Source: an uncultured Clostridia bacterium
GTDB lineage: Bacteria; Bacillota; Clostridia; UMGS1883
Assembly (NCBI GenBank): GCA_947626145.1
Contig: CANQRB010000001.1
Location: 186,001-250,000, forward strand
Length of the DNA: 64,000 bases
Direction of reading: 5' to 3'
This document shows, one piece after another, positions 41 through 18,274 of the stretch. The notes under the pieces were generated by a model that was not told the DNA's origin, did no database searches, and was given only the letters and a program-made list of their open reading frames with translations. How positions within the stretch are numbered: position 1 is the stretch's first letter; every line of letters starts with the position of its first letter. The position numbers and the translations under genes are program-made.

Positions 41-532
41 TTACACTACCCCGCCATGCAGTTTCCGCAGTTTTTGCCAAATCACGGCGAAAAGCAGTGC
101 CACAAGGGCTCCGGTCAGGGCACCGAGGGTGTCGATGCACACGTCGCGAAGCTGACAGGTCCGCCCGGGAACAAAGTATTGATGGATCTCATCGGTAACG
201 GCATAGGCCATTGAAAAGACCACGGTCATTAGCAGGGCGCGTTCCTTACGGTACTGGCGGACAAGGTGCATCAGCCAAAAGCCCAAAAAGGCGTAAATGC
301 AGAAATGAGCGCATTTCCGCACAATAAACATCACCGATTCAACCAGCCCGTCCTGAGCGGCCAAGCTCATGCGTCTGAAACCCGGAAACAGACCGAAAAC
401 AAAGCGTATAAATGAGCCGCTGGTGTCATTGGAGGCCGTGGCATCCTGAGCGGAAAACATGAAGATCATCACGGCCGAAGCAAGCACAAATACCCAAAGT
501 ACGGTTTTTAAAGCTGTCCTTTTACTCATCAC
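41..532 (-). CDS. VanZ-like family membrane protein
   Basis: This 163-residue integral membrane protein has the VanZ pattern: a Cys-Ala-His-Phe 'RKCAHF' turn in the middle, followed by a helix and then 'TDEIHQYFVPGR' and 'DVCIDTLGALTGAL' near the C-terminus. About four hydrophobic segments can be seen, at residues 8-25, 70-90, 100-115 and 133-150. VanZ-family proteins sit in the plasma membrane; some contribute to teicoplanin resistance, but the biochemical role of most is unknown. The start used is a GTG that overlaps the TGA of the upstream GDSL gene by 4 bases; an ATG follows directly and may be the true start. The overlap suggests translational coupling with the GDSL hydrolase gene. Confidence 0.85.
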   Translation of the reverse strand: MMSKRTALKTVLWVFVLASAVMIFMFSAQDATASNDTSGSFIRFVFGLFPGFRRMSLAAQDGLVESVMFIVRKCAHFCIYAFLGFWLMHLVRQYRKERALLMTVVFSMAYAVTDEIHQYFVPGRTCQLRDVCIDTLGALTGALVALLFAVIWQKLRKLHGGVV

Positions 533-14141: not shown

Positions 14142-15734
14142 TCACCACTTCAGGTTTCCGAAAATTCCTCTCAATATCTTGCGGCTGACCTCACGGCCTA
14201 CCTGCGAAAGGGCGCTGTTGGCGACCTTGTTCACAATGGCAAATTTCTTTTTGCGCTCTTTTTCAAGCTTGGCCTCCTCGCGCTCCTTTTCCCGTCTGGC
14301 ACGGTCCTCCTCGCGCTCGGCCTCCCTGCGTTCACGGGCCTCTTCCTTTTCACGGGCGATGCGCTCCTTCTCGGCCTCTTTTTCGGCCTTGATGCGCTCC
14401 TTTTCTGCCTCGGCGGCGGCTTCCTCCGCCTCCCGCTCCTCTCGGGCTTCCGCAAGTTCTTCATAAGCCGAACGGTTGTCAACGGCGTCCTTATACTTCA
14501 GGCACAGCTCGGAGCTGTTCACCAGCTTTTGACGCAGGTCGTCGCCGCAGGGGCCCATAAAGCTCTGGGGCGGCAGGATAAAGGCCCGCTGCACAACGGA
14601 GGGCGCGCCGTCTTCATCAAGGAAGGACACAAGCGCCTCGCCGGTGCCAAGAACTGAAATCGCCTCCTCGGTGTCAAAGGCCGGATTGGCACGGAACGTC
14701 TGAGCGGCTACCTTTACGGCCTTCTGCTCGGAGGGGGTGAAGGCCCTCAGTGCGTGCTGGATGCGGTTACCCAGCTGGGCAAGTATGGACTCGGGAATAT
14801 CCGCCGGACTTTGAGTGATGAAGTAAATTCCAACGCCCTTGGAGCGTATCAGCCGTATAACCTGCTCGATTTTATCCAGCAGAGCCTTGGGCGCGTCCTT
14901 AAATAAAAGATGAGCCTCGTCGAAAAAGAATGTCATTCTGGGCTTGTCCAGATCGCCAACCTCGGGGAGCGTCTCATAAAGATCAGTGAGCAGCCACAGC
15001 AGGAAGGTGGAATACATAAGCGGGTGATTGGCCAGCTTTACACAGTCGAGGACATTGATTATCCCGCGGCTGTCGGATGTGGTCCTTATCCAGTCCTTAA
15101 TGTCAAGCTCCGGTTCGCCGAAGAAGATGTCGCCGCCGTCGTTTTCAAGGGACAGCATGGCCCGTGTTATAGCGCCGACGCTCTGGGAGGACACGTTTCC
15201 GTATTCGGCCTGAATTTCCTTTGCGTTCTCGGACACGTAGTTCAGCATGGCCCGCAGATCTTTCATATCGATAAGCAGAAGGTTTTTGTCATCGGCCACG
15301 CGGAAGGCGATTTCAAGCACGCCCTCCTGAGTGGGATTTAGATCCATCAGCCGGGCCAGCAGGGTAGGGCCCATGTGTGACACGGTCGTCCTGACCGGTA
15401 TGCCCTTTTCGCCGTACACGTCCCAGAACATGACCGGGAAATCCTTATATTCAAAGCCCTCAGTCACATTACATTTTTCCAGCTGCTCCGTGACATGCTT
15501 ATTTTCCTCGCCCATTTTGGCGATACCGCAGACGTCGCCCTTGATGTCCACCATGAACACCGGCGAACCGACCATGCTCAGGGTCTCGGCCATAACCTTA
15601 AGGCTTATTGTCTTACCTGTACCGGTTGCTCCGGCAATAAGGCCGTGGCGGTTGACCATTTCGGGCCTGAGCATAATGGGCTCTCTGGGCTCCTCGCCGG
15701 TGGCTATCCAAAGCTTTCCTTCTCTTGTATACAT
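14142..15734 (-). CDS. HerA-like ATPase, DUF853/YjgR family
   Basis: A 530-residue P-loop ATPase. Walker A is GATGTGKT (residues 35-42), a Walker B-like 'MTFFFDEAHLLF' is near residue 265, and 'GIYFITQSPADIPESILAQL' is the sensor region typical of the DUF853/HerA-FtsK clade. The domain from residue 1 to about 410 is followed by a roughly 75-residue Glu/Arg/Lys-rich coiled coil and a short hydrophobic C-terminal tail. HerA-type ATPases are hexameric motors acting on DNA; the role of the YjgR branch is not established. The gene starts 14 bases after the C11 peptidase gene with a strong AAAGGAGG site, so the two are probably co-transcribed. Confidence 0.9.
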   Translation of the reverse strand: MYTREGKLWIATGEEPREPIMLRPEMVNRHGLIAGATGTGKTISLKVMAETLSMVGSPVFMVDIKGDVCGIAKMGEENKHVTEQLEKCNVTEGFEYKDFPVMFWDVYGEKGIPVRTTVSHMGPTLLARLMDLNPTQEGVLEIAFRVADDKNLLLIDMKDLRAMLNYVSENAKEIQAEYGNVSSQSVGAITRAMLSLENDGGDIFFGEPELDIKDWIRTTSDSRGIINVLDCVKLANHPLMYSTFLLWLLTDLYETLPEVGDLDKPRMTFFFDEAHLLFKDAPKALLDKIEQVIRLIRSKGVGIYFITQSPADIPESILAQLGNRIQHALRAFTPSEQKAVKVAAQTFRANPAFDTEEAISVLGTGEALVSFLDEDGAPSVVQRAFILPPQSFMGPCGDDLRQKLVNSSELCLKYKDAVDNRSAYEELAEAREEREAEEAAAEAEKERIKAEKEAEKERIAREKEEARERREAEREEDRARREKEREEAKLEKERKKKFAIVNKVANSALSQVGREVSRKILRGIFGNLKW

Positions 15735-15748
15735 TCTTTTTTCCTCCT

Positions 15749-17602
15749 TTATATAGTGGGTGTCCAGTAGACGTTGTTGTATATATCGGTCAGACGGAAC
15801 AGAGCCTTGCAGCCTGCGTCAACGGTAACGGAGCCGATCTCGGGCTCGCCGTATACGGTGTACTGTTCGCCAAGATAATAGCTGTCAATATACTCGCCGT
15901 CATAGGTGTAGTAATCACACAGGAAATCTATCCTGTCTCCGTCCTGAAGCTCAATAAGTCCCTTTGCCACGGTGTCGGCGCTGCCGCCGTAATCGGGCTG
16001 GGCCCCAAGAACGCTTCCGTAGGGGTTATCGTCGGTAAATTCAAGAATTAAATTCACCAGCTCACCGTTGAGCATGGCGGGCACGCGGCCCCTGATGGTA
16101 TACTCTCCGTCGCCGTGGGATTCGGCGGAAATCATATAGTAACTTACGGCCTGTCCGTCGATAGACAGCCATGTTCCGTCGTATTCGGCGATTAGATTGC
16201 CGTCGTCGTCAAAGGACGCCGAGTTGTCCATGCCAAGGTCTATATAGCCATCGCCGTCGTCCATAAACACGCTCAGCTCCACGTTCTGCACAAGCTCCCA
16301 CTGATCCTCTTCAAGGCTGAGCACACGGTCACCGTCACGGTTTTCGGTGAATATAAGGGCTTCCTCGTCCAACATATTTTTAGCGTAATAGTCCGCGCTG
16401 TCAGTTATCATCTTTCCGTCTATCCAGCCGGTGTCCATGCCGGAGGTAAAGCCGGAAAGCATACTCAAATCGCCGCCGCCCAAAAGCGAACTGAGGAGGC
16501 TGCCAATGGCGCCGCTGCCGCCGGGCTGCTGGATCTGCGCTCCCGAACCCATGAGCTGACCCAAAAGGTCGGTGAGTGATCCGGACTGACCGCCGGCGGC
16601 CATCTGTCCGCCCAGCTGAAGGCTGGCAAAGGTACGGATGCACTCGCTGTATTCCTCATCCATATCAATTTTATCGTAGGTGGAAATCATTCCGCCCACC
16701 TTTGAAGGATTTGCGTATGGAAAGTAGATGGAAATACCCTGAGAATTGTTCATTCCTCTTCCGGTACGGTTATAAACCACGCCTGTTTTGAGGGCCTTTG
16801 CCAGATCTTCGCCCTCCATGGTACCCATACGGTTCGCAAGATCAATAAGATCCACCTGATCGATGTGTACCGACTGTGCAAATTCCCTGACGCCGCTGCG
16901 GGCATTGGAAACCGTGGCGTAATCTCCGTCCTTTATAAGCTTTGAAACGCTCTTCGCGAAGTCCGCAAGCCGGCCCTCGGAGGCTTCCTTTATCTGAGCC
17001 AGATCAATCACTGAAAGAGTAGTCTGGCCCTGAGGCGTTTTGTCAACAAAGGTGTCGGCAATTATCTTGCCGATTTCCGGCGTACTTAGAGAGGTGTTTT
17101 CCGACACAGCGTTGAGCCAATCCGTGTAATACCAGCCAGAGCCGGGCTCGTTCTCCTCCGAGGCTATCATGTAATCGGCGTATTCCTCAAGGGTGAGGCC
17201 CGTTTCAAGAGTTGCCATCAGGCAGGCGTCAAAGCCTATAAAATCAAAGGTGCAGCTGCCGTCGTCCAGCGCTCTCTCAATCTTGTCAAGGGTCATTGAG
17301 CCGCTGTTCGGGTAATTCATATCATAGCCGTAGCCGCCGGTGGAGCCGCCGCCGTGATCCCAGAGGATAAGCTCGTACCGGTCGGCGGGGTAGTTCTGCT
17401 TGCAGTAGCGAATAAATTCGGAAAGAGTGTTCGGGTCAGTCATTGGCTTCGATCCAAGTTTCGGAACCAGACACTGGAGACCTCCGTCGGTAACCTTGTA
17501 TATCTGATTGGTGCTGGCGCTGACGACGTTGTTCTGCCATTTTGCGGCGCCGCCGGTTTCTATTATCAGGTTCACCCTGTCGCTCAGCCGAGCCCGGAGC
17601 AT
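15749..17602 (-). CDS. Clostripain family (C11) peptidase, catalytic part downstream of an in-frame TGA
   Basis: This part carries the C11 caspase-like fold: catalytic His in 'ELILWDHGGG' and catalytic Cys in 'IGFDACLMATLE' (about residues 307 and 351 of the joined protein). A flexible Gly/Leu-rich stretch and a roughly 200-residue beta-rich C-terminal domain follow. The first 17 codons of the peptidase fold lie upstream of the ATG used here, in frame, back to a TGA at 17654-17656; beyond that TGA the same frame continues as the N-terminal part (17654-18274). The ATG at 17602 has AGGAG immediately adjacent with almost no spacing and would drop the first strand of the fold, so independent initiation is doubtful. 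Read together the gene would be 841 codons plus stop. Confidence 0.8.
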   Translation of the reverse strand: MLRARLSDRVNLIIETGGAAKWQNNVVSASTNQIYKVTDGGLQCLVPKLGSKPMTDPNTLSEFIRYCKQNYPADRYELILWDHGGGSTGGYGYDMNYPNSGSMTLDKIERALDDGSCTFDFIGFDACLMATLETGLTLEEYADYMIASEENEPGSGWYYTDWLNAVSENTSLSTPEIGKIIADTFVDKTPQGQTTLSVIDLAQIKEASEGRLADFAKSVSKLIKDGDYATVSNARSGVREFAQSVHIDQVDLIDLANRMGTMEGEDLAKALKTGVVYNRTGRGMNNSQGISIYFPYANPSKVGGMISTYDKIDMDEEYSECIRTFASLQLGGQMAAGGQSGSLTDLLGQLMGSGAQIQQPGGSGAIGSLLSSLLGGGDLSMLSGFTSGMDTGWIDGKMITDSADYYAKNMLDEEALIFTENRDGDRVLSLEEDQWELVQNVELSVFMDDGDGYIDLGMDNSASFDDDGNLIAEYDGTWLSIDGQAVSYYMISAESHGDGEYTIRGRVPAMLNGELVNLILEFTDDNPYGSVLGAQPDYGGSADTVAKGLIELQDGDRIDFLCDYYTYDGEYIDSYYLGEQYTVYGEPEIGSVTVDAGCKALFRLTDIYNNVYWTPTI

Positions 17603-17653
17603 CTCCTGAAGGTCGGCGGTTGCCGCGCCTCCCTTGGCCTCAAGGTCTGTGCC

Positions 17654-17656
17654 TCA
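17654..17656 (-). other. In-frame TGA replacing a family-typical Cys codon
   Basis: The codons read ATG TGA GGC ACA on the minus strand, inside an otherwise intact frame of 841 codons. TGA is used as a normal terminator by many genes in this window (for example those ending at 529, 12866 and 59410), so whole-genome reassignment is excluded. A single base change would restore TGC or TGT. Confidence 0.85.
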
Positions 17657-18274
17657 CATATAGAGCATTACTGTCACCGTGTCCCTGCCGTTGCCCAGAA
17701 TTTGCGTCCGCTTCGGTGCGTCGGTGACGTTGAGCTGCTGATAATTGCTGTTTTGTCCGTAAGTGGGTGCCGATGTGTCCAGATAGCCGCCCAGCAGGTC
17801 GGATAAGCTGCCGTGCTGATTGTTAATTGTCTGAGCGCTCTGATCTGTGCCGTAGCCGCCCATGCCCATAAGTCCGTCAAGCAAATTGCCCATGCCGCCG
17901 AACATCGAAAAGAGCACCACGGCACCCACCACGAGAATTATCAGTATCAGACAGCCGCACCCGCAGCCCGCCGGCCTGCGGCCCATTCCGTTCATTCCGT
18001 CGTTGTTGCTTCCGCCGCCCATAAGGCCGCCGAGGAGAGAGCCTATCAGTCCGCCCATGAGCGCTCCGCCCATGCCGCGGCTGCCCCCGTTAAAATCCCT
18101 TTCGTTTTGTTCAATATTGGGACTGTCAATATTGCTTCCCTGTCCGGGCATATCCTGCGATCTTCTGCGTCCGAGTGGGCCGGACATACCAAAGCCCGAG
18201 CCCCTGCGCCTTATCGGTCCGCCTTGAGATGGCGTCCTCTTCTGCCGCTGGGGAGGCCGTCTGTTTCTGTCCAT
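17654..18274 (-). CDS. N-terminal anchor part of the C11 peptidase gene, ending at the in-frame TGA
   Basis: 206 residues: an Arg/Pro-rich cytoplasmic start ('MDRNRRPPQRQKR'), a Gly/Met-rich linker, one TM segment ('LILIILVVGAVVLFSMFG', about residues 112-130), a Gln/Ser-rich linker, and then 'GRDTVTVMLYM', the first strand of the clostripain fold. The frame then meets TGA where the family normally has Cys ('YM-C-G-(S/T)-D-L-E') and continues 'GTDLEAKGGAATADLQEM'. The gene is thus one membrane-anchored protease interrupted by a stop codon: a nonsense mutation, a sequencing error or a recoded codon. It starts at an ATG with a GGGGGAAGTG site and has its own promoter. Confidence 0.75.
   Translation of the reverse strand: MDRNRRPPQRQKRTPSQGGPIRRRGSGFGMSGPLGRRRSQDMPGQGSNIDSPNIEQNERDFNGGSRGMGGALMGGLIGSLLGGLMGGGSNNDGMNGMGRRPAGCGCGCLILIILVVGAVVLFSMFGGMGNLLDGLMGMGGYGTDQSAQTINNQHGSLSDLLGGYLDTSAPTYGQNSNYQQLNVTDAPKRTQILGNGRDTVTVMLYM

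What the first reader, a model, noticed from the sequence alone, without database searches (positions are those of the whole stretch)
17654..17656. In-frame TGA at a family-typical Cys position in a membrane-anchored clostripain protease
The frame from 18274 to 15749 is intact except for one TGA, in 'TVTVMLYM-(TGA)-GTDLEAKGG', where C11 proteases of Clostridia usually read 'YMCG(S/T)DLE'. All upstream (TM anchor) and downstream (His/Cys dyad) parts are intact, so decay has not spread. Options: selenocysteine, programmed read-through, recent nonsense mutation, or a base-call error. Bases 28-42 after the TGA can form GGCG-CGGCAAC-CGCC, a hairpin at a distance acceptable for a bacterial SECIS, and another (CCTTG/CAAGG) lies closer, but both could be chance.
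Basis: partly seen in the sequence, partly recalled or inferred. Interest (0 to 1): 0.75.

Follow-up and report, generated by a model that had tools for sequence, protein, structure and literature searches.

The report
Nonsense codon in clostripain-family protease gene
A single stop codon interrupts an otherwise normal gut-bacterial protease gene; the genome shows none of the machinery needed to read it as selenocysteine, so it is most likely an ordinary recent knock-out mutation or a sequence error.

Summary
The TGA is really there (17656..17654, minus strand, codon 207 of an 841-codon frame); the frame is otherwise intact and matches Pfam Peptidase_C11. It is ordinary. Same-genus orthologues (87, 71, 69% identical) are full length with TGC at this codon. 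Of 32 related loci covering the site, 31 have Cys, one Ile, none TGA. Selenocysteine is effectively excluded: SelA absent, SelB hits below cut-off (best is EF-Tu), the only SelD-model hit is PurM, tRNA-Sec-model hits are ordinary tRNAs, SelB absent from all 21 family genomes. No UCA-anticodon tRNA was found; release factor 2 is present. The proposed SECIS hairpin is weak (-3.8 kcal/mol; published limit -7.5); about 19% of ordinary codon positions in window genes have an equal or better one, as do two Cys-encoding orthologues. Selection on this lineage matches its sister's (N:S 40:73 against 46:88), so the stop is young or a consensus error. The Cys is not the catalytic Cys. Likely outcome: a 206-residue membrane-anchor stub without protease activity, a recent null allele. 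Real mutation and base-call error cannot be separated without reads.

The parts
15749..18274 (-). Interrupted gene for a membrane-anchored C11 (clostripain-family) protease, 841 codons plus TAA
   Evidence: full-length orthologues
17654..17656 (-). In-frame TGA, codon 207, where 31 of 32 related loci have a Cys codon
17657..18274 (-). N-terminal 206 codons: Gly-rich segment and hydrophobic anchor (CLILIILVVGAVVLFSMF); the expected truncated product
   Evidence: sequence; no NCBIfam match
15752..17653 (-). Part behind the stop: C11 catalytic domain with His (WDHGGG) and Cys (FDACLM), and C-terminal extension; intact but probably not translated
17615..17629 (-).

Best explanation
A recent nonsense mutation has turned the codon for a conserved, non-catalytic Cys (position 207) of a C11 protease gene into TGA in this strain. 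Translation should end after the N-terminal membrane-anchor part, giving a stub without the caspase-like catalytic domain, so the allele is null. Shown here: the TGA, the intact relatives, the missing Sec genes, the normal constraint on the rest of the gene. Inferred: that translation terminates, that activity is lost, and that the base is real rather than a consensus error.
For: Orthologues in three same-genus genomes are unbroken and carry a Cys codon; no TGA in 32 related loci. No SelA. SelB-model hits are below the cut-off, the best in a 405-aa frame that starts like EF-Tu. The only SelD-model hit is PurM, judged from its sequence and its place beside a PurF-like frame. tRNA-Sec-model hits are Ser, Leu, Gly and His tRNAs. 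No UCA anticodon among the tRNAs called. RF2 is present, 526.6 bits against a cut-off of 370. SelB is absent in 21 of 21 genomes searched in the family. The window lineage has the same N:S as its sister (40:73 against 46:88), so decay has had no time to spread.
Against: The frame carries no second lesion, which also fits a sequence error. Only 9 of 268 one-step nonsense changes would fall on a Cys codon, so the position is mildly unusual for a random stop. The assembly is about 95% complete, and tRNA-Phe and tRNA-Ile were not found either.
Confidence: 0.64

Rival explanations
1. Base-call or consensus error: the strain's gene is intact and the TGA exists only in the assembly (or reflects a minority strain in a metagenomic mixture).
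For: One isolated lesion in a frame under normal constraint; all relatives intact; the genome is a draft of 23 contigs, and its nearest relatives' records are metagenome bins.
Against: Substitution errors are rare in well-covered assemblies (general knowledge); no other such interruption with homology on both sides stood out in the window. No reads were available.
Confidence: 0.31
2. Read-through of the UGA by a near-cognate or suppressor tRNA, giving some full-length protease.
For: The part behind the stop is as constrained as in the sister lineage, but a very young stop gives the same pattern.
Against: No UCA-anticodon tRNA found; RF2 present; no relative shares the TGA; no structure beyond chance after it.
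Confidence: 0.04
3. Selenocysteine insertion at TGA 207.
For: TGA aligned with a conserved Cys; a small hairpin at a permitted distance.
Against: SelA, SelB, SelD and tRNA-Sec not found; SelB absent across the family; hairpin energy fails the bSECIS rule and is matched or beaten at 18.6% of codon positions; no TGA homologue.
Confidence: 0.01

Closest known systems
Peptidase family C11 (clostripain, PmC11; Pfam PF03415)
   Same: Domain match E 3.4e-41; His of WDHGGG and Cys of FDACLM align with the conserved His/Cys regions of solved C11 proteases.
   Different: N-terminal Gly-rich and hydrophobic anchor segment and a long C-terminal extension (shared with its orthologues); here interrupted by TGA.
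Bacterial selenoproteins found by TGA/Cys alignment (e.g. PMC1088965)
   Same: TGA aligned with a conserved Cys.
   Different: No Sec machinery in the genome, no qualifying bSECIS, no TGA homologue elsewhere, not a known redox site.
Ordinary single-nonsense null alleles in bacterial draft genomes
   Same: Single lineage-specific stop, intact relatives, unchanged selection signature.
   Different: Nothing evident.

Membership tests
Peptidase C11 | C11 domain profile match above the gathering score | tested here: met
   142.4 bits against 25.8, on the read-through protein
Peptidase C11 | His/Cys catalytic dyad (His133/Cys179 in PmC11, PMC4850288) | tested here: met
   His of WDHGGG and Cys of FDAC align to solved C11 chains; both lie behind the TGA
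Bacterial selenoprotein | Genome encodes SelA | tested here: not met
   no match
Bacterial selenoprotein | Genome encodes SelB | tested here: not met
   best hit 179.4 bits (cut-off 242.25), in the EF-Tu frame; none in 21 family genomes
Bacterial selenoprotein | Genome encodes SelD | tested here: not met
   only PurM, 28.3 bits against 125
Bacterial selenoprotein | Genome encodes tRNA-Sec (UCA) | tested here: not met
   all hits below the gathering score and called as other tRNAs; no UCA anticodon. Assembly about 95% complete
[quoted passage not shown]
   best candidate 4 bp, 7-nt loop, 28 nt, -3.8 kcal/mol (unbulged stems only); whole region z -0.42
Bacterial selenoprotein | TGA-containing homologues in other organisms | tested here: not met
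   0 of 32 loci
Recent nonsense allele | Close relatives intact, lesion unique to this lineage, selection signature otherwise unchanged | tested here: met
Recent nonsense allele | Base supported by sequencing reads | not testable with these tools
   no reads are held

The most novel reading that the evidence does not exclude
The UGA is read through at low level without selenocysteine machinery, so that the anchored stub and a little full-length protease are both made from one gene.
Probability: 0.04. Interest if true: 0.35.

Novelty: already known. Interest (0 to 1): 0.08.

Why it matters
It matters little beyond annotation. The case shows that a TGA at a conserved Cys with a hairpin after it is not by itself evidence of selenocysteine: the genome has no Sec genes, and hairpins as stable or better follow about one codon in five in the window's genes. 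It should not enter lists of candidate selenoproteins.

Tried and rejected
Selenocysteine: SelA, SelB, SelD, tRNA-Sec and bSECIS were all tested and not met. Reassigned TGA: RF2 is present, the tRNA-Trp found has anticodon CCA, and TGA is used as a terminal stop. Suppressor tRNA: no UCA anticodon among the tRNAs called; one weak tRNA-like match just outside the window (L089) is not called by ARAGORN. Long-standing pseudogene: rejected, as N:S equals that of the intact sister. Restart behind the stop: the first in-frame ATG (17602) has its AGGAG directly abutting it with no spacer (sequence) and would lose the start of the catalytic domain; thought unlikely, not tested. A literature search for clostripain with selenocysteine found two papers with one passing mention of each. 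One family scan failed on a stop codon in the reference and was replaced by reading the frame.

Full report
Observation. The minus-strand frame 18274..15749 holds 841 codons plus a terminal TAA, with one internal stop, TGA at 17656..17654, codon 207. Read through, the protein matches Pfam Peptidase_C11 (142.4 bits, residues 205-520), and the WDHGGG and FDACLM segments align with the His/Cys regions of solved C11 proteases. In PmC11 the dyad is His133/Cys179 (PMC4850288). Codon 207 lies at the start of the catalytic domain and is not the catalytic Cys.

Relatives. Three same-genus genomes have full-length, uninterrupted orthologues at 87, 71 and 69% identity, all with TGC at this codon. The matching records are titled uncultured Clostridia bacteria, isolates named 'Lapin', which suggests rabbit gut. 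Over 32 loci covering the site (three fetched twice) the codon is TGC 28 times, TGT 3 times and ATT once, never TGA. In what is held, the lesion is confined to this genome.

Age of the lesion. Between the window gene and its nearest orthologue dN is 0.077 and dS 1.15. Polarised with two outgroups, changes on the window lineage are 40 nonsynonymous to 73 synonymous, against 46:88 on the intact sister lineage; behind the TGA the counts are 27:58 against 37:68. The part behind the stop has thus been under normal constraint for nearly all of its history. This fits a very young mutation, a consensus error, or read-through, and argues against an old pseudogene.

Selenocysteine. SelA gives no match in the genome. 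SelB-model hits are below the cut-off, the best (179.4 bits, cut-off 242.25) in a 405-aa frame that begins like EF-Tu. The only SelD-model hit scores 28.3 bits against a cut-off of 125 and is PurM, judged from its sequence and from lying beside a PurF-like frame. tRNA-Sec-model hits are all below the gathering score and are Ser, Leu, Gly and His tRNAs. No tRNA with anticodon UCA was seen among the tRNA genes found and called. None of 21 genomes of the family has SelB. The assembly is about 95% complete and tRNA-Phe and tRNA-Ile were not among the genes found, so one missing gene would prove little; the absence of four separate components, together with the family-wide absence of SelB, is strong evidence.

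SECIS. The published bSECIS rules are a 3-9 nt loop with G in its first two positions, a 4-16 bp stem, 16-37 nt spacing and MFE of at most -7.5 kcal/mol (PMC13188914). Of 7516 codon positions in twelve window genes, 18.6% have one at least as stable, and two of the three Cys-encoding orthologues have slightly stronger ones. The whole 60-nt region folds no better than synonymous recodings (45% fold as well or better) or dinucleotide shuffles (z -0.42). The nearer hairpin has only 13 nt of spacing. My scan took unbulged stems only.

Other decoding. RF2 is present, the tRNA-Trp found has anticodon CCA, and 9 of the 36 stop-to-stop frames of at least 300 codons in the window end in TGA. Reassignment of TGA is out. 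Low-level read-through by near-cognate tRNAs cannot be excluded from sequence, but nothing supports it.

Mechanism. Most likely translation stops after residue 206, leaving a Gly-rich stub with one hydrophobic segment and no catalytic domain, so the strain lacks this protease (inference). The gene is followed 14 nt later by a HerA-like ATPase gene that keeps its place in the nearest relative (94% identical), so a polar effect on it is possible (inference). Whether the base is real needs reads.

Prior. A single-step nonsense change falls on a Cys codon in 9 of 268 ways and gives TGA in 54 of 268 (counted on the intact nearest orthologue).

Noticed in passing
L089 (G000:C1:250519-250984), 201-266 minus strand, about 700 bases beyond the right edge of the window: A weak tRNA-like match (RF00005, 30.2 bits, gathering score 29) that ARAGORN does not call; perhaps a degenerate tRNA.
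   Followed up: partly
window 14142-15734 minus strand: HerA-like ATPase 14 nt downstream of the C11 protease, in the same order in the nearest relative (94%), and adjacent to the homologous protease in L020 (54%, there on its upstream side): a conserved pair of unknown purpose.
   Followed up: partly
window 17630-17632 minus strand (codon 215): The window protein has Gly (AKGGAATAD) where the same-genus orthologues have Ser (AKSGAATAD), eight codons after the TGA.
   Followed up: no
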